Source of the DNA: Allobosea sp.
Lineage (GTDB): Bacteria > Pseudomonadota > Alphaproteobacteria > Rhizobiales > Beijerinckiaceae
Direction: 5' to 3'
DNA: 32,903 bases
Assembly: GCF_030694325.1 (NCBI RefSeq)
Contig: NZ_JAUXYO010000035.1
Location: forward strand, 1 to 32,903
Shown one piece after another: positions 12,124 to 21,351 of this stretch (its first letter is position 1; each line of letters begins with the position of its first letter). Below the pieces are notes generated by a model that ran no database searches, was not told the DNA's origin, and saw only the letters and a program-made list of their open reading frames with translations. The position numbers were made by a program, and so were the translations under genes.

Positions 12124-12591
12124 GTGGCGAAGCTCAATGTGAACGGCAAGGTGCTGGACGTCGAAGCGGCGGGCGATACGCCGCTGCTCTGGGTCCTGCG
12201 CGAACAGATCGGCCTGACGGGCACGAAGTACGGCTGCGGCGTCGCCCAGTGCGGGGCCTGCACGGTCCATATCGACGGCGTCGCGACCCGCGCCTGCGCG
12301 CTCCCGCTCGATGCGGTGACGGCGGAACAGAAGATCGTCACGATCGAAGGGCTCTCGCCCGATGGCACGCATCCGGTGCAGCAGGCCTGGATCAAGCACG
12401 AAGTGCCGCAATGCGGCTTCTGTCAGAGCGGCATGATCATGGCCACGGCCGCCCTGCTGCAGGCCAATCCGAAGGCGACCGAGGCCGACATCGCCGCCGA
12501 GATCACCAATATCTGCCGGTGCGGGACCTATGCGCGGGTCAAGACCGCGATCCTCGACGTCGTCGCGGGCGGGACGCTCGGCCGCGGCTGA
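12124..12591 (+). CDS. iorA: (2Fe-2S) subunit of an IorAB-type molybdenum hydroxylase
   Basis: 155 residues, the usual size of the small iron-sulfur subunit of isoquinoline 1-oxidoreductase-like enzymes. The first cluster is ligated by Cys38, Cys43, Cys46 and Cys58 (plant-ferredoxin type, CGVAQCGAC). The second is ligated by Cys97, Cys100, Cys131 and Cys133 (QCGFCQSG ... ICRCGTY). It passes electrons from the molybdenum site to an external acceptor. The start is GTG at 12124, supported by GGGAGG 7 bases upstream and by the conserved beginning AKLNVNGK. It has no signal of its own; in this family it is thought to be carried through the Tat system bound to the large subunit. It is the first gene of the iorAB-soxXYZA run. 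Confidence 0.93.
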
Positions 12592-12681
12592 TCTCGCTTT
12601 GGTTTCCCTTCCTCGCGAGGTCGAGGCCGGTGCGATCGTCGCCCGCCGCCTCCCTCGTGCCAACCTGATCCGGAGGACGAC

Positions 12682-14880
12682 ATGACGACCCTCTCTGCCA
12701 ACCAGCCTTCCACCGGCCCGGCGCTCTCCCGCCGCAGCCTGCTCGCCGGCTCCGCCGCCGCGGCCGGCGCCTTCAGCTTCGGCTTCACGATCCCCTTCGG
12801 CGAGGCGCAGGCGCAAGGCGCCGTGCCCGAGATCAACGCCTGGGTCGTGATTCATCCCGACGACAAGGTGGTGATCCGCATCGCCCGCTCCGAGATGGGG
12901 CAGGGCACCTTGACCGGTCTCGCCCAGCTCGTCGCCGAGGAGCTGAACTGCGACTGGGCGAAGGTCACGACCGAGTATCCGACGCCGGGCCAGAACGTCG
13001 CCCGCAACCGCATCTGGGGCAATTTCTCGACCGGCGGCAGCCGCGGCATCCGCGAATCGCATGAATATGTCCGCAAGGGCGGCGCCGCCGCCCGCACCAT
13101 GCTGATCCAGGCGGCGGCCAATGAGTGGAAGGTGCCGGCCGCCGAATGCACCGCCGAGAAGAGCGTGATTACCCACAAGGCCTCCGGCCGGTCGCTACGC
13201 TACGGCCAGGTCGCGGCTGCGGCCGCCAAGCTCGAGGCGCCCAAGGATGTCGCGCTGAAAGATCCGAAGGACTGGATCATCGCCGGCAAACCGCTGGCGA
13301 GGCTCGACACCGCCGACAAGACCACCGGCGCCAAGATCTACGGCATGGACTTCAAGCTGCCCGGCATGCTCAACGCCGCGATCAAGGATTGCCCCGTCTT
13401 CGGCGGCAAGGTGAAGAGCTTCGACGCCGCCAAGATCAAGGACATGCCGGGCGTGAAGCATGTGCTTCCCGTCGGCGACAGCGCGGTGACGGTCGTGGCC
13501 GACACCTGGTGGCAGGCCAAGACCGCGCTCGACGCGCTGCCGATCGTCTGGGACGAGGGGCCGCACACCAATGTCTCCAGCGAGAGCCTCGCCGCCTGGC
13601 TGAAGGAGGGGCTGGACGTGCCCGAGGCCGTGGTCGGCAACCAGAACGGCGACGTCAAGGCGGCGATCGCCAGCGCCGCGCGCACGATCGAGGCGGTCTA
13701 TTCCTACCCGTTCCAGAACCATGCCTGCATGGAGACGATGAACGCGACCGCGCTCTACACGCCCGAGAAATGCGAGGTCTGGACCCCGACGCAGAACGGC
13801 GAGGCGGCGCTCGCCGCGGCGGCGGAGGCCTCGGGCCTGCCGATCGCGAAATGCGAGGCCTACAAGATCGACCTCGGCGGCGGCTTCGGCCGGCGCGGCG
13901 CCGTTCATGACTGGGTCCGCCAGGTCGTCGCTATCGCCAAGCAGATCCCCGGCACGCCGGTGAAGCTGATCTGGTCGCGCGAGGAGGACATGCTGCATGG
14001 CCGATTCCACCCGCTGACGCAGTGCAAGCTGACCGGCGCCCTCGACAAGGATGGCAACCTCACCGGCCTGCACATGCGCATCTCCGGCCAGTCGATCGTC
14101 GCCGGCATCTTCCCGCAGAACATCCAGAACGGGCGGGATCCGGTCGTTTTCCAGGGCCTCAACCCGCCCGGGCCGGAAGCGTCGATCGGCTACACCATCC
14201 CGAACCTGCTGATCGACCACGCCATGCGCAACCCGCATGTGCCGCCGGGCTTCTGGCGCGGCGTCAACCTCAACCAGAACGCGATCTATCTCGAATCCTT
14301 CATCGACGAACTCGCGAACGCGGCGGGCAAGGACCCGCTCGAGTTCCGCCGGGCCCTGATGAAGAACCACCCCAAGCATCTCGCCGTGCTCAATGCTGCG
14401 GCCGAGAAAGCGGGCTGGGGCAAGCCGCTGCCCGCCGGCGTCTTCCGCGGCATCTGCCAGACCATGGGCTTCGGCGCCTATGTCGCGGCGGTCGCCGAGG
14501 TCTCGGTCAGCGACGACGGCAAGCTCAAGATCCACCGCATCGTCGCAGCGACCGATCCGGGCCATGTCGTCAACCCGGCGCAGGTCGAGCGCCAGATCGA
14601 GGGCTCCTTCGTCTATGGGCTTTCGGCGGCGCTCTATGGCGAGATCACCATCAAGGGCGGGCGCGTCGAGCAGGAGAACTTCGACACCTATGAGGTGATG
14701 CGGCTGGAGGCGATGCCCGCGGTCGAGACCGTGCTCGTGCCGTCGGGCGGCTTCTGGGGCGGCGTCGGCGAGCCGACGATCGCGGTCGCGGCGCCCGCCG
14801 TGCTGAACGCGATCTTCGCCGCCACGGGCAAGCGCATCCGCAACCTGCCGCTCAAGAACGCCGACCTGAAGAAGGCGTGA
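12682..14880 (+). CDS. iorB: Molybdopterin-binding subunit of an IorAB-type molybdenum hydroxylase
   Basis: 732 residues. The N-terminus has a twin-arginine signal (SRRSLLAG at residues 16-23, hydrophobic stretch, then AQAQ), so the mature enzyme should be periplasmic. Xanthine-dehydrogenase-family cofactor motifs follow: ARSEMGQGTLTGLAQL near residue 75, TGGSRGIRES near 115, LGGGFGRRG near 398 and GGVGEPTIAVAAP near 695, whose Glu is the expected catalytic base. All key motifs are intact. Substrates of this family are N-heterocycles or aldehydes hydroxylated with water oxygen; the actual substrate is unknown. A strong CGGAGGA precedes the ATG. The stop overlaps or abuts the next gene (soxX), implying coupled translation. 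Confidence 0.93.
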   Translation: MTTLSANQPSTGPALSRRSLLAGSAAAAGAFSFGFTIPFGEAQAQGAVPEINAWVVIHPDDKVVIRIARSEMGQGTLTGLAQLVAEELNCDWAKVTTEYPTPGQNVARNRIWGNFSTGGSRGIRESHEYVRKGGAAARTMLIQAAANEWKVPAAECTAEKSVITHKASGRSLRYGQVAAAAAKLEAPKDVALKDPKDWIIAGKPLARLDTADKTTGAKIYGMDFKLPGMLNAAIKDCPVFGGKVKSFDAAKIKDMPGVKHVLPVGDSAVTVVADTWWQAKTALDALPIVWDEGPHTNVSSESLAAWLKEGLDVPEAVVGNQNGDVKAAIASAARTIEAVYSYPFQNHACMETMNATALYTPEKCEVWTPTQNGEAALAAAAEASGLPIAKCEAYKIDLGGGFGRRGAVHDWVRQVVAIAKQIPGTPVKLIWSREEDMLHGRFHPLTQCKLTGALDKDGNLTGLHMRISGQSIVAGIFPQNIQNGRDPVVFQGLNPPGPEASIGYTIPNLLIDHAMRNPHVPPGFWRGVNLNQNAIYLESFIDELANAAGKDPLEFRRALMKNHPKHLAVLNAAAEKAGWGKPLPAGVFRGICQTMGFGAYVAAVAEVSVSDDGKLKIHRIVAATDPGHVVNPAQVERQIEGSFVYGLSAALYGEITIKGGRVEQENFDTYEVMRLEAMPAVETVLVPSGGFWGGVGEPTIAVAAPAVLNAIFAATGKRIRNLPLKNADLKKA

Positions 14881-14891
14881 GACCAGCCGGC

Positions 14892-15338
14892 ATGCGGGCG
14901 CGGATCGGGTTGGGCGCAGCATTGCTGGCTCTGCCGGTGATGTCGCCCGCCATGGCGCTCGAACCCTTCGCAGTCGTCGGCGACGCGATCCCCGCGCCGC
15001 TTGGCGGCCTCGATGGCGATGTCCGGCGCGGCGAGGCCCTGGTGCGCGACCGCGAGCGGGGCAACTGCCTGATCTGCCACCAGGGCGCGGACCCCTCCGA
15101 GCCCTTCCAGGGCTCGATCGGCCCGCCGCTCGCCGGCGTCGGCGCGCGGCTCGACGCCGGCCAGATCCGGCTGCGGCTCGTCGATGCCTCGCTTTTGAAC
15201 CCGCAGACCGTGATGCCGCCCTATTTCCGGACGGACAATCTGCAGGATGTCGCCCCGTCCTTCCGGGGCAAGCCGGCCCTCTCGGCCCAGGAGATCGAGG
15301 ATGTCGTCAGCTATCTCGCCACGCTCCGCGCGGAATGA
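14892..15338 (+). CDS. soxX: SoxX, monohaem cytochrome c of the SoxAX complex
   Basis: 148 residues with a Sec signal peptide (hydrophobic residues 5-22, ending near PAMA). One haem-binding CXXCH is at Cys59-His63 (CLICH), preceded by GEALVRDRERGNC as in SoxX, and TVMPPYF supplies the likely Met ligand. GLVDASLLNP-like and EIEDVVSYLATL segments complete the SoxX pattern. SoxX with SoxA joins a sulfur substrate to the SoxY cysteine and collects the electrons. A GTG at 14877 overlapping the iorB stop (GTGA) gives a form five residues longer; the ATG at 14892 makes a more typical signal. Either way it is translationally coupled to iorB. Confidence 0.9.
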   Translation: MRARIGLGAALLALPVMSPAMALEPFAVVGDAIPAPLGGLDGDVRRGEALVRDRERGNCLICHQGADPSEPFQGSIGPPLAGVGARLDAGQIRLRLVDASLLNPQTVMPPYFRTDNLQDVAPSFRGKPALSAQEIEDVVSYLATLRAE

Positions 15339-15795
15339 CAGGGGGATCCACCGCCGCAGCCTGTTGGCAGGCACGGCGGCCGGTCTGGTCGCCACCGGAC
15401 TCGCGCTGCCGGCCTTTGCCGACACGCCGCCCGATCTCGCCGGTCTCGTTGCCCGCGTCACCGAAGGCGCCGTGCCCGAGCGTGCGCGCATCAGGCTCGA
15501 GATCCCGGCGCTCGCCGAGAACGGCAATTCCGTCGACACCCGAATCGTCGTCGACAGCCCGATGACGGAAGCCGACCATGTCCGCTGGATTCATCTCATC
15601 GCCGAGAAGAACCCGTTTCCGGACATGGCGCGCTTCCATCTCGGCCCGCGCGCCGGCCGCGCCGAGGTCGCGACCACGCTGCGGATCGCGCAATCCCAGA
15701 AGGTCGTGGCGCTGGCTTCGCTGAGCGACGGCCGCTTCGTCATGACGGATGCCGACATCGTCGTGACGCTGAGCGCCTGCATCGACGGCGGCTGA
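15301..15795 (+). CDS. soxY: SoxY-like sulfur carrier with an altered C-terminal arm
   Basis: About 164 residues. It carries a Tat signal (HRRSLLAG, hydrophobic stretch, then PAFA), as SoxY does. The mature part matches SoxY throughout: RLEIPALAENGNSV, VDSPMTEADHVRWIHLIAEKNPFP, MARFHLGPRAGRAEV and SLSDGRFVMTDADIVVTL. The protein ends SACIDGG instead of the canonical GGCGG, so the carrier cysteine lies five residues from the end with bulky Ile-Asp after it. Such a tail may not load or present sulfur in the usual way. The ATG at 15301 overlaps soxX by 38 bases and is the only ordinary start before the RR motif; the exact start is uncertain. Confidence 0.85.
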   Translation: MSSAISPRSARNDRGIHRRSLLAGTAAGLVATGLALPAFADTPPDLAGLVARVTEGAVPERARIRLEIPALAENGNSVDTRIVVDSPMTEADHVRWIHLIAEKNPFPDMARFHLGPRAGRAEVATTLRIAQSQKVVALASLSDGRFVMTDADIVVTLSACIDGG

Positions 15796-15806
15796 GGAGA
15801 CCGACC

Positions 15807-16130
15807 ATGAGCTTCAACGCCCGCATCACTGTGCCCGCCCAGGCGAAGGCCGGCGAGATCGTCGAGATCAGGGTTCTCACCCGTCACCCGATGGACCGCG
15901 GCGGCCAATCCGACGGCAAGGGCGGCACCGTGCCGCGCAAGATCCTGAACCGGCTCACCGCGACCTATGCCGGCGAGCCGATCTTCCGCTTCGACATGCA
16001 CACCGGCGTCTCGGCCAACCCCTTCGTCTCCTTCACGACGCGGGCGGTGGAGACCGGCGACATCGTCTTCGAATGGCGCGAGGACGGCGGCGCGACCTAC
16101 ACCCGCACCGCCCGGCTGACCGTGACGTGA
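15807..16130 (+). CDS. soxZ: SoxZ, partner of SoxY in the sulfur carrier
   Basis: 107 residues, full length for SoxZ. It has the family pattern: an N-terminal beta strand, EIVEIRVLTRHPMDRGG, PRKILNRLTATYAGEPIFRFDMHTGVSANPF and a final FEWREDGG strand pair. It has no signal peptide; SoxZ is exported with Tat-targeted SoxY as a heterodimer. The ribosome site GAGGAG overlaps the soxY stop, and the gap is 11 bases, so the two subunits are co-translated. Nothing is missing from this subunit. Confidence 0.95.
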   Translation: MSFNARITVPAQAKAGEIVEIRVLTRHPMDRGGQSDGKGGTVPRKILNRLTATYAGEPIFRFDMHTGVSANPFVSFTTRAVETGDIVFEWREDGGATYTRTARLTVT

Positions 16131-16164
16131 GGCGGTGAGCGGTTCCGATCGTGCTTCACCGCCA

Positions 16165-16270
16165 GTCATCCCGGACGCAGCGCAGCGGAGATCCGGGATC
16201 CATTCCTGACCCTTTCCGAGCAGGCGTTCCGGAATGGATCCCGGGTCTCCCTTCGGTCGCCCGGGATGAC
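16165..16270. repeat. Complete palindromic repeat between soxZ and soxA
   Basis: A 106-base imperfect inverted repeat. The outer arms are GTCATCCCGG at 16165 and CCGGGATGAC ending at 16270. The inner arms are a perfect 14-bp stem, CCGGGATCCATTCC with GGAATGGATCCCGG, around a loop of about 22 bases. Its left arm is nearly identical to bases 1-24 of the window on the opposite strand. It fills most of the soxZ-soxA gap and ends 9 bases before the best soxA start. It could fold as a long RNA hairpin and modulate soxA expression (inference). Confidence 0.9.
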
Positions 16271-16279
16271 CCGCGTGGT

Positions 16280-17044
16280 TTGGCAGCGATCGGCTTCGTG
16301 GTCGCGCTCGCCTGTCTCATTCTCCAGACATCCGGCGTCCTCGCCGAGATCAGATCCGGCTCCGACTTCCTCTCCCCCGAACTGCGCCGGCAGCAGGCGG
16401 ACGAGACGCGCAATCCCGGCTTCTTCTGGGTCGAGCAGGGACGCGAGCTGTTCACCCGCAAGCCGGCCGGGGAGGGGCAGGCCTGCATCGGCTGCCATGC
16501 GCAGCCGCAGCAGAGCCTGCGCAGCGCCGCGACGCGTTACCCGCAGATCGACGCCGCCGCGGGCCGGTTGCTGAACCTCGAGGGGCGCATCGAGCAGTGC
16601 CGGGTCGAGCGGCAGGGCCAGCCCGCCTTCGGCTACGAGACGCCGGAACTGCTTTCGCTGACTGCCTATCTCGCCTCGCTCTCGCGCGGCCTGCCGATGC
16701 AGGTCCGTACCGACGGGCCGGCGCAGCCCTTCTACGAGGCCGGCAAGGCCTTCTTCGAGCGAAGGCAAGGCCAGCTTAACCTGTCCTGTCAGCAATGCCA
16801 TGACGGGCTCGTCGGCCAGAAGCTGCGCGGCGACACGATCAGCCACGGCGCCGGAACGGGCTACCCCGCCTATCGGCTGGAATGGAACGATGTCGGCTCG
16901 CTGCACCGGCGCCTGCGGGCCTGCTCGCTCGGCGTGCGCGCGACGCAGTTCGAGGCAGGCGGGCCCGAATACCTCGCGCTGGAACTCTATCTCGCCTCTC
17001 GCGCCACGGGGCTTCCCGTCGAAACGCCGGCGATGCGCCGGTAA
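16280..17044 (+). CDS. soxA: SoxA, dihaem cytochrome c of the SoxAX complex
   Basis: 254 residues from the proposed TTG start. The first 22 residues are hydrophobic and end GVLA, a plausible export signal lacking the usual basic start. Two haem sites are visible: CIGCH at Cys69-His73 and CQQCH at Cys170-His174. Cys107 (EQCRVERQ) is the expected axial ligand of the first haem. Cys215 (RACSLGVR) marks the active-site region, so the catalytic parts look intact. The frame stays open back to a GTG at 16151, but those residues would be translated repeat. No ATG fits: the ATG at 16266, at the repeat's end, is out of frame. The start is therefore uncertain, but the identification is not. Confidence 0.88.
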   Translation: MAAIGFVVALACLILQTSGVLAEIRSGSDFLSPELRRQQADETRNPGFFWVEQGRELFTRKPAGEGQACIGCHAQPQQSLRSAATRYPQIDAAAGRLLNLEGRIEQCRVERQGQPAFGYETPELLSLTAYLASLSRGLPMQVRTDGPAQPFYEAGKAFFERRQGQLNLSCQQCHDGLVGQKLRGDTISHGAGTGYPAYRLEWNDVGSLHRRLRACSLGVRATQFEAGGPEYLALELYLASRATGLPVETPAMRR

Positions 17045-17128: not shown

Positions 17129-18070
17129 ATGCTGCAATTCCTGGCCTTTCGCGCCGCGCGTGCCTTCGTCACCGTCCTGATCTGCGTCTCCGCGGTCTTC
17201 ATCGCGCTGCGGCTGGCCGGCGACCCGGCCGACATCATGCTCTCGATCGACACGCCGCCGGATGTTCGCTCCTATTACCGTGAGCTCTGGGGGCTCGACC
17301 GGCCGCTGATCGAGCAATATCTGCGCTATCTCGCTGCCGTCGCCCGGGGCGATTTCGGCCTGTCGTTCGGGGACGACCGCCCCGCCTTCGAGGCCGTGCG
17401 CGAGGCGCTGCCCAAGACCGTCCTGCTCGGCGGTTCGGCCCTGCTGCTGGCCTTGCTGATCGGCCTGCCGCTCGGCGTGCTCGCGGCGCTTCGCCACAAC
17501 AGCGCCATCGACCGGCTCGCCATGGCGTCGGCCGTCTTCGGCTATGCGATCCCGATCTTCTTCCTCGGCATCCTGTTGATCCTGCTGTTTGCGCTGAAGC
17601 TGCGCGTGCTGCCGTCGGCGGGCTCGGAGACGGCCTGGCACCTCGTGCTGCCGGTGGTCACGCTGGCTCTTCCGCTGGCGGGACGGCTGGCGCGCTTTGC
17701 CCGGACCTCGACGCTGGAGGTGCTGGGCAAGCCCTTCATCCGCGCGGCCCGTGGCCGGGGCGTGATGCCGCTCGCGGTGATCCTGCGCCACGCCCTGCCC
17801 AATGCGGCGGTGCCCCTCCTGATGTTCCTCGGCATCGAGATCGGCGGCATCCTGGCCGGCAGCGCCGTTGTCGAGACGATCTTCGCCTGGCCGGGCATCG
17901 GCCGGCTGCTGGTGGACTCGGTCTCGACGCGCGATCTCGCCGTGGTGCAGGCGGTGATCCTGACCGTCACCGTGATCATGGTCGCTGCCAATCTGCTCGT
18001 CGACATCCTGCATATCCTGATCGATCCACGCCTCGGCGGGTTCGCGCGCGGCTCGGGGAGACCGGCCTGA
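17129..18070 (+). CDS. Peptide-type ABC importer permease (DppB/OppB-like)
   Basis: 313 residues with six membrane helices. The N-terminal segment and the ELWGLDRPLIEQYLRYL region, followed by RGDFGLSF, are the hallmarks of DppB/OppB permeases. The coupling motif for the ATPase lies around residues 205-220 (FIRAARGRGVMPLAVILRHALPNA). A family ending IDPRL is present. The stop overlaps the next permease start (TGATG), so the two are translationally coupled. It is the first gene of the plus-strand unit and lies 84 bases after soxA; no good ribosome site is seen. Confidence 0.93.
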   Translation: MLQFLAFRAARAFVTVLICVSAVFIALRLAGDPADIMLSIDTPPDVRSYYRELWGLDRPLIEQYLRYLAAVARGDFGLSFGDDRPAFEAVREALPKTVLLGGSALLLALLIGLPLGVLAALRHNSAIDRLAMASAVFGYAIPIFFLGILLILLFALKLRVLPSAGSETAWHLVLPVVTLALPLAGRLARFARTSTLEVLGKPFIRAARGRGVMPLAVILRHALPNAAVPLLMFLGIEIGGILAGSAVVETIFAWPGIGRLLVDSVSTRDLAVVQAVILTVTVIMVAANLLVDILHILIDPRLGGFARGSGRPA

Positions 18071-18951
18071 TGACGAGCCTCGATACGCTGCCGGCGCCTG
18101 CGGCACCGCCGCGTCGTCACGGCCGGGGCATGTCGCCGGTCGTCAGGCTCTCGGCCGGTTTCCTGGTGGCGGTGGTCGGCGTGGCGCTGCTCGCCGACTG
18201 GCTGGCACCTCTGCACTACACCACGCAGAACCTCGCCGCCCGGCTCAAGCCACCGCTGTTCGAGAGCGGCGGCGTCACCCATTGGCTGGGGACGGACCAA
18301 CTTGGGCGCGATATCCTGAGCCGGCTTATCTTCGCGATCCGGACTTCGATCCTGATCGCAGTCGCCGGGACCCTGATCGGCGCCGTCTTCGGCACGCTGC
18401 TCGGCTTCGTCGCGGCACGCTGCCGCGGCCTCGTCGATCAGACGATCATGATGGCGGTGGATGCGCAGGCCGCGATCCCGGCGCTGTTCCTGGCGCTAAC
18501 CATGCTCGCCTTCTTCGGCAACAACATCCTGCTCTTCATCGTGCTGGTGAGCATCGACGGCTGGGACCGCTACACGCGCCTCGCCCGCGGTCTCGTCGTC
18601 TCTGAGCAGGAGAGCGACTACATCAACGCCGTCGAGGGGCTGGGCGCCTCGACGGCGCGGGTCATGCTCGGCCATCTCCTGCCCAACATCGTCGCGGCTC
18701 TGGTCGTCCAGGCGACGCTGAACTTCCCGGGCACGATCCTGCTCGAAACCTCGCTGTCCTTTCTCGGACTCGGCGTCCAGCCGCCCGAGACCTCGCTCGG
18801 CCTGATGCTGGGGGAGGGGCGCCGCTATCTCCTGAACGCCTGGTGGATCGCGGTCTTTCCCGGTCTCGCCATTTTCCTGACCACGCTCTCGATGAGCCTG
18901 TTCGGCGACTGGCTGCGCGACCGCTTCGACCCCACCACGCAACGGAACTGA
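18070..18951 (+). CDS. Peptide-type ABC importer permease (DppC/OppC-like)
   Basis: 293 residues. A cytoplasmic N-terminal tail and first helix are followed by HWLGTDQLGRDILSRLI, the signature of DppC/OppC permeases. The ATPase-coupling loop is YINAVEGLGASTARVMLGHLLPN near residue 180. FLGLGVQPPETSLGLML and a final FGDWLRDRFDP tail are standard. It pairs with the preceding permease to form the channel. The GDPD gene starts 3 bases after its stop, showing that the phosphodiesterase belongs to the transporter operon. Confidence 0.94.
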   Translation: MTSLDTLPAPAAPPRRHGRGMSPVVRLSAGFLVAVVGVALLADWLAPLHYTTQNLAARLKPPLFESGGVTHWLGTDQLGRDILSRLIFAIRTSILIAVAGTLIGAVFGTLLGFVAARCRGLVDQTIMMAVDAQAAIPALFLALTMLAFFGNNILLFIVLVSIDGWDRYTRLARGLVVSEQESDYINAVEGLGASTARVMLGHLLPNIVAALVVQATLNFPGTILLETSLSFLGLGVQPPETSLGLMLGEGRRYLLNAWWIAVFPGLAIFLTTLSMSLFGDWLRDRFDPTTQRN

Positions 18952-18953
18952 CC

Positions 18954-19721
18954 ATGCCGTCTCCCGTCACCGGCCCGCCCGCCCGGCCGCTCGCCATCGC
19001 CCATCGCGGCGGGGCCCTGCTCGCAGCCGAGAACACCGCCGCGGCTTTTGCCCGCTCGGCCGCGCTCGGCGCCGACTGGGTCGAGACCGACCTGCGCCTG
19101 AGCGCCGACGGCGCGCTCGTCTGCCTGCACGACGACGACCTGCTGCGCCTCGCCGGAGATCCGCGCCGCGTCGCCGAAACCGATCTCGCGACGCTGAAAC
19201 GCCTCGTGCCTAGCCTGATGACGCTGGCGCAAGCGATCGCGGCCTCGGCGCCGCTCGGGCTCCTGCTCGACGTGAAACTGGCCGATCCGAAGATCCTGCC
19301 GGACGTTCTCGCGGCGCTCGGCGAGGGCGGGGCGAAAGGGCGCGCCGTCCTCGGGCTGCGCGACTTGGCCACGGTCGCGGCGGCGCGTGTTCTCGACCCC
19401 GATATAGCGATCCTCGGCCTGCTGCCCGATCCCGACGGGGCGGGGGATGCCCGAGCCGCCGGCGCAGACTGGTTGCGGCTCTGGCAGGGGCAGGCCAGCC
19501 GGCAGCGCATTGCTGCGGCCCAGGCGGCGGGGCTGCAGGCCGCGGTCATGGTCGGCCAGCCGCGGACCGTTCCGCAAGCCGGCTATCCGCCCTTCGGCGT
19601 CGGCGCCATCGATGCCCAGGGCATCGCACGGGTTCTGGCACTCGGTCCCGACGCAGTGATGCTCGACGATCCGCGCCTGCTCCTCGACGCGCGGCCTGTC
19701 ACCGGCCTGTCGTCAAGCTGA
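18954..19721 (+). CDS. Glycerophosphodiester phosphodiesterase (GDPD/UgpQ-like)
   Basis: 255 residues. It belongs to the TIM-barrel GDPD family, which hydrolyses glycerophosphodiesters to glycerol 3-phosphate and an alcohol. Catalytic and metal-binding residues are in place: His17 in AHRGG, Glu44 and Asp46 in VETDL, and His59 in LHDDD; DVKL near residue 103 supplies a further acidic ligand. There is no signal peptide, so it is cytoplasmic and would act on imported substrate. Embedded between the permease and binding-protein genes, it suggests that the ABC importer takes up phosphodiesters rather than peptides (inference). Confidence 0.9.
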   Translation: MPSPVTGPPARPLAIAHRGGALLAAENTAAAFARSAALGADWVETDLRLSADGALVCLHDDDLLRLAGDPRRVAETDLATLKRLVPSLMTLAQAIAASAPLGLLLDVKLADPKILPDVLAALGEGGAKGRAVLGLRDLATVAAARVLDPDIAILGLLPDPDGAGDARAAGADWLRLWQGQASRQRIAAAQAAGLQAAVMVGQPRTVPQAGYPPFGVGAIDAQGIARVLALGPDAVMLDDPRLLLDARPVTGLSSS

Positions 19722-19743
19722 GGCAAGTCAGCGCCATCGCGGG

Positions 19744-19764
19744 GCGGGCTGTCGGCCGGCCCGC
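19744..19764 (+). promoter_or_regulatory. Hairpin between the GDPD and binding-protein genes
   Basis: A 6-bp GC stem (GCGGGC at 19744-19749, GCCCGC at 19759-19764) with a 9-base loop lies in the 67-base gap ahead of the binding-protein gene. Like other hairpins beside binding-protein genes it could tune relative expression. The stem is short, so this is tentative. Confidence 0.3.
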
Positions 19765-19788
19765 ACAATGCCTTTGTCGAGGACCGTC

Positions 19789-21351
19789 ATGACGCTGATT
19801 TCCCGCCGCCGCTTCCTTGAGGCCGCCGCCGCCGCTCCGGTGCTCGCCGGCACGCCGCTCGCCTTCGCGCAGGCCGAAAGCCGCCCGAACTTCACCGTCG
19901 CCGTCGCCGACCTGCCTGCCACGCTCGAGCCGGCGCGCGAGCTTTCCAATGTCGGCACCCGCGTCACCTACTCGATTTTCGACACGCTGATCCGGCGCGA
20001 CTTCCTCGCCGCTGCCGATGGCGGTGGCTCGGAGCTGAAGCCGCATCTGGCGACCAAATGGGAGCGGGTCTCGCCGCAGGAACTGGTGGTGACTCTGCGC
20101 CAGGGCGTGAAGTTCCATAATGGCGACGAGCTGACCTCGGAGGACGTCGCCTACACCTTTCGCGACGGCCGCCTCTGGGGTGACAAGGCGCAGATCCCCG
20201 GCGGTCGCGCCTATTTCGGCATCCTCGCAAGCGTCGAGCCAGTCGACCGCTACTCCGTCCGCTTCAAGACGAAGGCGCCCGACGTGCTGCTTGAGCAGCG
20301 CCTCGCCTCCTGGTGTGCCTGGATCGTCAACAAGCGCGCCTATGAGGCCATGGGCTTCGAGGCCTATTCGCGCAAGCCGATCGCGACGGGTCCCTACCGC
20401 GTCGTCTCGCATGCTGCCGCCGAGGCGACCGTGCTGGAGGCCTTCGACGACTACTTCATGGGCAAGCCAACGGCGCGGCGCGTCACCTTCCGGCGCGTGC
20501 CGGAACTCGCGGCGCGCGTCGCCGGTCTCGTCGCCGGCGACTACGACCTGATCACCAACATCCCGCCGGACCAGATGAGCGTCGTCGGCGCCTACAAGGA
20601 TATCGACGTCCGCTCCGTCGTGCTGGCCAATGTCCATGTGCTGGCCTTCAACCAGCAGGACAAGGTGCTGGCCGACAAGCGCATCCGCCAGGCGCTGTCC
20701 TTCGCGATCGATCGTCAGAAGCTGGTCGACACGCTCTGGCAGGGCACGGCGCAGGTGCCGGCCGGCCACAACTATCCCGAATACGGCCAGATGTTCGTCG
20801 AGGGCCGCAATCTCGTCCACGACCCGGCCCGGGCCAAGGCGCTGTTGCAGGAAGCCGGCTACAAGGGCGAGCCGATCGTCTACCGCACCATGGCGAACTA
20901 CTACACCAATGCGCTCGAGGCCGCGCAGATCCTGGTCGAGCAGTGGAAGGCGGTCGGCATCAACGCCTCGCTGCAGGTCGTCGAGAACTCGGCCCAGATG
21001 CGCGGACCGGGCGTCCAGATCTTCAACTGGTCGAACTCGACGCGCCTGCCCGATCCGCTCGGCGCGATCTGGGTGGCCTGGGGCCCGGCCGGCGAGATCC
21101 AGGTCTCGAAGTTCTGGACTTCGACCGCGGCCTTCAACGCCGCCGGCACCGCGCTCGAGGCCGAGACCGACCCGGCTCGCCGCAAGGCCCTGTTCACGCA
21201 GATGCTCGACGTCTTCGAGGACGAGGCGCCGGCCACGATCCTCTACCAGCCGAGCGAGGCCTACGCGATCAAGCGCTCGATCGCCTGGCGGCCGACCACC
21301 TTCTATTTCATGGATCTGCGGCCGGACAACCTGGCCTTCGCCAAGGGCTGA
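19789..21351 (+). CDS. Periplasmic substrate-binding protein of the peptide-type ABC importer
   Basis: 520 residues, family 5 extracellular solute-binding protein (DppA/OppA type). A Tat-like signal (SRRRFLEAAAAAPVLAG, then AFAQA) is unusual for such lipoprotein-like or Sec-exported binding proteins, but common in this genome style. The mature part shows the family landmarks LEPARELSNVGTRVTYSIFDTLIRRD, LKPHLATKWERVSPQELVVTLRQGVKFHNGDELTSEDVAYTF and later VRQALSFAIDRQKLV-like text near residue 300. The ATG at 19789 follows GAGGACC and starts just before the signal; an ATG at 19768 is in frame but less well placed. The ligand is unknown; the context points to a phosphodiester. Confidence 0.92.
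   Translation: MTLISRRRFLEAAAAAPVLAGTPLAFAQAESRPNFTVAVADLPATLEPARELSNVGTRVTYSIFDTLIRRDFLAAADGGGSELKPHLATKWERVSPQELVVTLRQGVKFHNGDELTSEDVAYTFRDGRLWGDKAQIPGGRAYFGILASVEPVDRYSVRFKTKAPDVLLEQRLASWCAWIVNKRAYEAMGFEAYSRKPIATGPYRVVSHAAAEATVLEAFDDYFMGKPTARRVTFRRVPELAARVAGLVAGDYDLITNIPPDQMSVVGAYKDIDVRSVVLANVHVLAFNQQDKVLADKRIRQALSFAIDRQKLVDTLWQGTAQVPAGHNYPEYGQMFVEGRNLVHDPARAKALLQEAGYKGEPIVYRTMANYYTNALEAAQILVEQWKAVGINASLQVVENSAQMRGPGVQIFNWSNSTRLPDPLGAIWVAWGPAGEIQVSKFWTSTAAFNAAGTALEAETDPARRKALFTQMLDVFEDEAPATILYQPSEAYAIKRSIAWRPTTFYFMDLRPDNLAFAKG

What the first reader, a model, noticed from the sequence alone, without database searches (positions are those of the whole stretch)
12124..17044. Molybdenum hydroxylase operon fused to a soxXYZA set without soxB or soxCD
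Seen: iorA, iorB, soxX, soxY, soxZ and soxA run in one direction with overlaps or very short gaps. IorB and SoxY carry Tat signals and SoxX and SoxA are c-type cytochromes. Known: standard Sox thiosulfate oxidation also needs the SoxB thiol hydrolase and usually SoxCD; neither is here, and IorAB enzymes normally have unrelated neighbours or a dedicated cytochrome. Inference: this may be a distinct periplasmic pathway in which IorAB oxidises an organic (perhaps sulfur-bearing heterocyclic) compound and SoxAX accepts electrons or transfers sulfur to SoxYZ. I do not know a described system of this composition.
Basis: partly seen in the sequence, partly recalled or inferred. Interest (0 to 1): 0.72.

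Follow-up and report, generated by a model that had tools for sequence, protein, structure and literature searches.

The report
Mo-hydroxylase operon with variant Sox carrier
Many proteobacteria carry a conserved gene set that joins a molybdenum enzyme to half of the thiosulfate-oxidising Sox machinery, with an altered sulfur-carrier arm and without the usual partner enzymes, which points to an uncharacterised sulfur-related oxidation in the periplasm.

Summary
In detail: iorA-iorB-soxX-soxY-soxZ-soxA run in one direction at 12124-17044. (1) SoxY is a variant: it fits NCBIfam 'SoxY-related AACIE arm protein' better than true SoxY, and its arm ends SACIDGG, not GGCGG. (2) The linkage is widely conserved: of 80 loci found by IorB alone, 65 of the 68 with enough downstream DNA hold soxXYZA. 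IorB lay beside 90 of 102 xAC-type SoxY and none of 37 GGCGG-type, though only 7 of those 37 loci reach 15 kb. (3) Relatives often add a flavocytochrome c sulfide dehydrogenase. No SoxB or SoxC over cut-off is in this genome; 11 of 28 genomes picked for this SoxY type lack SoxB. SoxAX keeps its haem motifs and catalytic cysteine. Against strict coupling: IorAB about 70% identical stands without sox in Sinorhizobium and Methylosinus, and unlinked copies branch among linked ones. Best reading: a periplasmic oxidation module for a sulfur-bearing substrate, not thiosulfate; substrate and order of steps are inferred. No description was found in the papers searched. A new variant of the Sox kind.

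The parts
12124..12591 (+). iorA: [2Fe-2S] subunit of a xanthine-oxidase-family molybdenum hydroxylase
   Evidence: PF01799, PF00111
12682..14880 (+). iorB: molybdopterin-binding catalytic subunit, twin-arginine N-terminus, C-terminal GGVGE motif
   Evidence: motif and RR invariant in 36 rows; best fold match 8gy3_C
14877..15338 (+). soxX: monohaem cytochrome c subunit of SoxAX
   Evidence: TIGR04485 77.6 bits, cut-off 61; CxxCH and Met113 1.00 in AAC-type rows; 1h31_B
15301..15795 (+). soxY variant (AACIE-arm type); start codon uncertain
   Evidence: (TIGR04487 158.6 bits vs TIGR04488 85.2)
15772..15792 (+). SoxY carrier arm SACIDGG in place of GGCGG
15807..16130 (+). soxZ
16160..16272 (.). 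dispersed palindromic repeat lying between soxZ and soxA
   Evidence: (78 alignments in own genome, many places scoring on both strands)
16280..17044 (+). soxA: dihaem cytochrome subunit of SoxAX (frame open from 16151; start uncertain)
   Evidence: (TIGR04484 207.3 bits, cut-off 110)
16922..16924 (+). SoxA catalytic haem-ligand cysteine codon (role recalled from SoxA structures)
   Evidence: Cys180 of the fragment starting at 16385, 1.00 in both types; aligned with 1h31

Best explanation
This is a conserved periplasmic oxidation module, separate from thiosulfate Sox. IorAB (xanthine-oxidase-family Mo hydroxylase) oxidises the carbon part of a sulfur-bearing substrate using water. SoxAX oxidatively couples the sulfur of that substrate, or of its product, to the single cysteine of the altered SoxYZ arm. 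A flavocytochrome c sulfide dehydrogenase, encoded in the same locus in many relatives and elsewhere in this genome, deals with sulfide-level sulfur. Electrons leave through c-type cytochromes. SoxB and SoxCD are not part of it. Shown by sequence: gene content, order, broad conservation, intact catalytic residues, altered arm, occurrence without SoxB. Inferred: that all parts act on one substrate, what it is, and the order of steps.
For: IorB alone as query recovers the sox genes in 65 of 68 informative loci of 80. In a second, slightly overlapping sample of 385 alphaproteobacterial genomes, loci with IorB at 60% identity or more were sox-linked in 21 of 25 informative cases (2 more undecided), at 50-60% in 3 of 3 (1 undecided), and below 50% in 0 of 6 (2 undecided). 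Over all distinct loci found by IorB searches and holding IorB at 50% or more, 102 were linked, 11 not, 11 undecided. SoxY arm type and IorAB go together: 90 of 102 xAC loci hold IorB, the 12 others are loci of 3.0-4.4 kb; 0 of 37 GGCGG loci do (some places counted twice, 99 and 30 distinct tails; only 7 of the 37 reach 15 kb). SoxY, SoxX and SoxZ of this type form their own clades, with support from 0.55 to 1.0. SoxA keeps both CxxCH and the haem-ligand Cys, SoxX its CxxCH and Met, in all AAC-type rows. FccB lies in the locus in 33 of 65 full loci. SoxB over cut-off is absent in 11 of 28 genomes picked for this SoxY type, including two same-genus relatives. In Bradyrhizobium diazoefficiens only soxY1 of two soxY genes is needed for thiosulfate oxidation (PMC5748708, introduction read); Bradyrhizobium loci here carry the AAC type beside IorAB (L162, L167, L172, L174), so soxY2 is probably this type (inferred).
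Against: IorAB of the same clade occurs without sox: 14 loci in the tree, among them two near-identical Sinorhizobium plasmid loci with a cytochrome c and a Methylosinus locus with a multihaem cytochrome. Most branch among linked ones; L284, L285, L218 and L286 form a clade of their own. So IorAB can work without Sox. G526 has iorAB-soxXA but no SoxY match in the genome. FCSD is not seen in 32 of 65 full loci. No further gene family recurs near the cluster in more than 25 of 96 loci, so nothing nearby names a substrate. The acidic residue two after the Cys, present in 102 of 102, is not universal: arms end AACVIG, AACLIG or GACIVG in L207-L210 and L288. SoxA does not separate by arm type in its tree.
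Confidence: 0.42

Rival explanations
1. The SoxYZ(AAC) arm carries a carbon intermediate: an aldehyde bound to the cysteine is oxidised by IorAB to a thioester, much as SoxYZ fusion carriers beside quinoprotein alcohol, methanol and formate dehydrogenases have been proposed to serve carbon metabolism.
For: Best structural and sequence match of IorB is the large subunit of membrane-bound aldehyde dehydrogenase 8gy3. PMC11237559 (section 20, and section 24 part 1 of 2, read) proposes carbon roles for SoxYZ-S2/S4. SoxB is absent in 11 of 28 genomes.
Against: SoxAX is kept with intact catalytic Cys, which a plain aldehyde carrier would not obviously need; FCSD recurs; SoxY and SoxZ here are separate genes and score under the TIGR04557 cut-off.
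Confidence: 0.2
2. Two co-regulated but chemically separate functions: IorAB oxidises an aldehyde or heterocycle and only borrows the operon's c-type cytochromes as electron acceptor, while FCSD and SoxXYZA handle sulfide.
For: IorAB stands alone beside its own cytochrome c in some lineages. A script found a same-strand non-Sox haem protein near 6 of 25 unlinked IorB against 3 of 127 linked; three of those 6 are distant outgroup loci. G526 keeps SoxXA but not SoxYZ.
Against: Co-inheritance over two proteobacterial classes with a co-varying SoxY arm; 19 of 25 unlinked IorB show no such cytochrome by the script (18 if the annotated one of L233, which it missed, is counted).
Confidence: 0.2
3. 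IorAB replaces SoxCD: it oxidises the sulfane sulfur bound to SoxYZ, so this is an inorganic sulfur pathway with a different molybdenum enzyme.
For: SoxCD is also a water-using Mo enzyme (recalled); SoxC is over cut-off in only 14 of 28 genomes.
Against: No member of the xanthine oxidase family is known to me to oxidise sulfur (recalled); the GGxGE motif with the catalytic Glu of carbon hydroxylases is kept (function recalled); soxY2 of B. diazoefficiens is not needed for thiosulfate (PMC5748708); no SoxB is in the operon.
Confidence: 0.1
4. A decayed remnant of a thiosulfate Sox cluster beside an unrelated Mo enzyme.
For: SoxB and SoxC missing; arm changed.
Against: Haem and catalytic residues invariant in 97-100 AAC-type rows; linkage kept across two classes.
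Confidence: 0.03

Closest known systems
Sox thiosulfate-oxidising system (SoxXA, SoxYZ, SoxB, SoxCD)
   Same: SoxX, SoxZ, SoxA homologues over NCBIfam cut-offs; SoxAX haem motifs and Cys; SoxY cysteine
   Different: No SoxB or SoxC over cut-off in this genome; SoxY arm SACIDGG (xAC type) in place of GGCGG; a Mo hydroxylase of another family in the operon
NCBIfam TIGR04487 SoxY-related AACIE arm protein
   Same: Best family for the window SoxY; the Methylobacterium sp. NMS14P homologue is annotated so in an operon of the same make-up plus the FCSD pair
   Different: Window SoxY scores 158.6 bits, below the 172 cut-off; the name covers SoxY only, not the operon
IorAB / membrane-bound aldehyde dehydrogenase (8gy3)
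   Same: Fold and full-length sequence match, E 5e-103
   Different: 28% identity in the Foldseek match; apart from SoxX and SoxA no cytochrome gene is in the window operon
Flavocytochrome c sulfide dehydrogenase (1fcd, 5n1t)
   Same: FccB of relative L076 matches 5n1t at 3e-124
   Different: In this genome it is unlinked to the operon
SoxYZ-S2/S4 fusions beside PQQ alcohol, methanol and formate dehydrogenases
   Same: Altered-arm SoxY homologue beside dehydrogenase genes (PMC11237559, sections read)
   Different: Those are YZ fusions; here SoxY and SoxZ are separate and come with SoxXA and IorAB

Membership tests
Sox thiosulfate oxidation system | SoxXA with haem motifs and catalytic Cys | tested here: met
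Sox thiosulfate oxidation system | SoxY with GGCGG arm | tested here: not met
   SACIDGG
Sox thiosulfate oxidation system | SoxB | tested here: not met
   best 130.6 bits, cut-off 550 (sub-cut-off matches also ring in 10 of 14 control genomes); one search finds SoxB over cut-off in 17 of 28 genomes, so the search works
Sox thiosulfate oxidation system | SoxC of SoxCD (SoxD not searched) | tested here: not met
   best 168.3 bits in own genome, cut-off 420
Sox thiosulfate oxidation system | Oxidises thiosulfate | not testable with these tools
   PMC5748708 (introduction read) says soxY2 of B. diazoefficiens is not essential for it
TIGR04487 SoxY-related AACIE arm | Score at or over the curated cut-off | tested here: not met
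   158.6 of 172; 16 of 297 order genomes exceed it
TIGR04487 SoxY-related AACIE arm | AAC-type C-terminal arm | tested here: met
   SACIDGG, Ala before Cys, acid two after it
Xanthine-oxidase-family Mo hydroxylase (IorAB type) | [2Fe-2S] subunit plus MoCo-binding subunit with C-terminal GGxGE | tested here: met
Xanthine-oxidase-family Mo hydroxylase (IorAB type) | Oxidises isoquinoline | not testable with these tools
   no assay possible
SoxYZ-like quinoprotein-associated carrier (TIGR04557) | Fused SoxYZ over cut-off | tested here: not met
   SoxY 58.3 and SoxZ 40.7 bits, cut-off 140; genes separate

The most novel reading that the evidence does not exclude
A Mo hydroxylase of the xanthine oxidase family acts on a substrate held covalently on the xAC-type arm of SoxYZ after SoxAX has loaded it: protein-tethered hydroxylation chemistry that makes SoxB and SoxCD unnecessary and is widespread in Alpha- and Betaproteobacteria.
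Probability: 0.25. Interest if true: 0.88.

Novelty: new variant of a known kind. Interest (0 to 1): 0.66.

Why it matters
Finding soxXYZA is easily read as thiosulfate oxidation. This operon gives that signal in genomes without SoxB over cut-off (11 of 28 examined), so such annotation may mislead in Bosea, Methylobacterium, Bradyrhizobium, Duganella and others. The pairing of an altered carrier arm with one clade of Mo hydroxylase makes a clear, testable prediction of a new sulfur-carbon reaction in tractable organisms.

Tried and rejected
Considered and rejected: remnant sox cluster (residues invariant); dependence on a complete sox set elsewhere (no SoxB or SoxC over cut-off, one SoxA); chance neighbourhood. 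A search for further conserved neighbours gave none that names a substrate: outside the core the widest cluster of homologues is in 25 of 96 loci (by eye an ABC ATP-binding protein, median 3.9 kb from the core), then one in 11 (by eye a response regulator) and others in 10 or fewer; these were not annotated by a family search. An extra cytochrome beside unlinked IorAB is only a weak trend. The 8gy3 alignment gave no substrate clue. Ten paper searches (listings and starts of abstracts seen) found no description of this operon; the library lacks most subscription papers. The Bosea sp. WAO genome paper (PMC5894208, passages seen) describes, in those passages, only the soxAX/YZBCD operon in Bosea.

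Selection limits: L063-L090 were chosen by SoxY or SoxA hits and are biased to linkage. From I fetched stretches for 19 of 34 listed matches, for 39 of 51; the rest were already held, at a contig end, or low-scoring (mostly second copies). L270 is the same contig as L131, and L303 is from a genome already held. In one search I left out L001-L021, L094 and L095 (short or repeated loci) before counting, and some places remain counted twice.
Full report
What is there. Six genes on the + strand at 12124-17044 encode IorA, IorB, SoxX, SoxY, SoxZ and SoxA. Junctions are tight up to soxZ. Between soxZ and soxA lies a palindromic repeat that is dispersed in this genome (78 alignments, many places counted on both strands), so soxA probably starts near 16280. 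The next genes, peptide/nickel-type ABC permeases, a phosphodiesterase and a solute-binding protein, are not kept beside the cluster in the 24 other loci compared (at most one of them has a homologue of any of these within its stretch).

The SoxY is a variant. It scores 158.6 bits on TIGR04487 'SoxY-related AACIE arm protein' (cut-off 172) and 85.2 on true SoxY (cut-off 125). Its arm ends SACIDGG. Of 142 pooled SoxY sequences 102 were of the xAC type, 37 GGCGG, and 3 unreadable, cut or doubtful. IorB lay in the same locus in 90 of the 102 and in 0 of the 37. The 12 exceptions are loci of 3.0-4.4 kb. Some places are counted twice: there are 99 distinct xAC and 30 distinct GGCGG tails, and only 7 of the 37 GGCGG loci reach 15 kb, the others being 2.2-3.7 kb. 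In the 102 the residue before Cys is Ala and the residue two after it is Glu (87) or Asp (15). Later loci soften the second point: L207-L210 and L288 end AACVIG, AACLIG or GACIVG. SoxY, SoxX and SoxZ of the two types fall into separate clades (support 0.55 to 1.0); SoxA does not.

The SoxAX chemistry looks intact: both CxxCH of SoxA, its haem-ligand cysteine, and CxxCH and Met of SoxX are conserved in all AAC-type rows (97 SoxA, 100 SoxX), and SoxA and SoxX align with the solved SoxAX 1h31.

Linkage tested from the IorB side. A scan of genome contigs with the IorB alignment alone kept the best 80 of at least 582 relatives. Of these 80, 65 hold all four sox genes downstream on the same strand, 3 show part of them before the contig ends, 9 end within 1.4 kb of iorB, and 3 have 10 kb downstream without them (L125, L158, L169). 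The named hosts include Bosea, Microvirga, Bradyrhizobium, Mesorhizobium, Roseomonas, Belnapia, Skermanella, Duganella, Massilia and Roseateles. A second sample of 385 alphaproteobacterial genomes gave 43 with IorB at E 1e-200 or better. I fetched stretches for 39 of its 51 matches; it overlaps the first sample slightly (L270 equals L131). With IorB at 60% identity or more, 21 of 25 informative loci were linked; at 50-60%, 3 of 3; below 50%, 0 of 6; 5 more were undecided. Over distinct loci found by IorB searches with IorB at 50% or more, 102 were linked, 11 unlinked and 11 undecided.

A flavocytochrome c sulfide dehydrogenase flavoprotein (FccB) is in 33 of the 65 full loci, 21 times between iorB and soxX. 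The copy of L076 matches solved FCSD 5n1t and 1fcd. In this genome the gene is elsewhere, cut by two contig ends (C12 and C112).

Independence from thiosulfate Sox. This genome has no SoxB (best 130.6 bits, cut-off 550), no SoxC (best 168.3, cut-off 420) and a single SoxA. It is in 357 contigs but rated 99.5% complete, and two same-genus genomes, one of 2 contigs, also lack SoxB over cut-off. Of 28 genomes picked for an AAC-type or TIGR04487-level SoxY, 17 have SoxB over cut-off and 11 do not; 14 have SoxC. In B. diazoefficiens soxY1 but not soxY2 is essential for thiosulfate oxidation (PMC5748708, introduction read; the source paper that I tried to look up is not held).

Evidence against a strict unit. 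IorAB of about 70% identity stands without sox on two Sinorhizobium plasmids, after a response regulator, an ATP-binding protein and a small cytochrome c, and in Methylosinus trichosporium beside a multihaem cytochrome and XdhC. In a labelled set of 166 IorB loci, which includes loci chosen by their sox genes, 127 were linked, 25 unlinked with enough DNA, 14 undecided. Eleven unlinked ones are distant outgroups. Of the other 14, ten branch at eight places among linked loci and four (L284, L285, L218, L286) form a clade of their own (some of these nodes have low support). This suggests repeated loss or relocation of sox. G526, a single-contig genome, has iorAB-soxX-soxA and no SoxY match. So IorAB can work without SoxYZ in some lineages.

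Mechanism. IorB's best match in fold and sequence is the large subunit of membrane-bound aldehyde dehydrogenase 8gy3 (model mean pLDDT 82), and its GGVGE motif is invariant in 36 rows. From general knowledge, such enzymes add water-derived oxygen at carbon, and SoxAX joins a sulfur species to SoxY's cysteine with release of two electrons. I therefore favour oxidation of a sulfur-bearing substrate, with its carbon handled by IorAB and its sulfur by SoxAX-SoxYZ, helped by FCSD. What is shown is the parts and their conservation; the substrate, order and release step are inferred. A carbon-carrier role like that proposed for SoxYZ-S2/S4 (PMC11237559, section 20 and part 1 of section 24 read), or two separate functions, remain open.

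Novelty. NCBI's naming already knows the SoxY variant: the Methylobacterium copy is annotated so inside an operon of the same make-up with the FCSD pair. In ten paper searches I found no description of the operon or its function. I file it as a new variant of the Sox kind.

Noticed in passing
window 16160-16272: Palindromic dispersed repeat inside the operon between soxZ and soxA; 78 alignments in the own genome, many places on both strands. The soxZ-soxA gap is also long in L082 and L083 and short in L096, L097 and L099.
   Followed up: partly
L206 (G526): Natural short form iorAB-soxX-soxA with no soxYZ, and no SoxY match in that genome.
   Followed up: partly
L290, L291, L293: More distant IorAB (51-52%) followed by SoxY ending SGAC[IA]E, SoxZ and SoxA; SoxX not detected by tblastn.
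   Followed up: no
L233, L234: Sinorhizobium plasmids: response regulator, ATP-binding protein, cytochrome c, iorA, iorB without sox; a simple setting in which to find the IorAB substrate.
   Followed up: no
L212, L213, L214, L216: Small genomes of 1.7-2.1 Mb carry the cluster with arms SACTE; G661 and G746 also hold a second, unlinked IorB copy (L215, L218).
   Followed up: no
L145: soxX stays beside iorB while soxYZA lie about 4.7 kb further on, separated by other genes.
   Followed up: no
window 17129-21351: Peptide/nickel-type ABC permeases, a glycerophosphodiester phosphodiesterase and a family 5 solute-binding protein follow soxA directly.
   Followed up: no
G000 C12 end and C112 end: The own-genome FCSD gene is cut by two contig ends.
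   Followed up: partly
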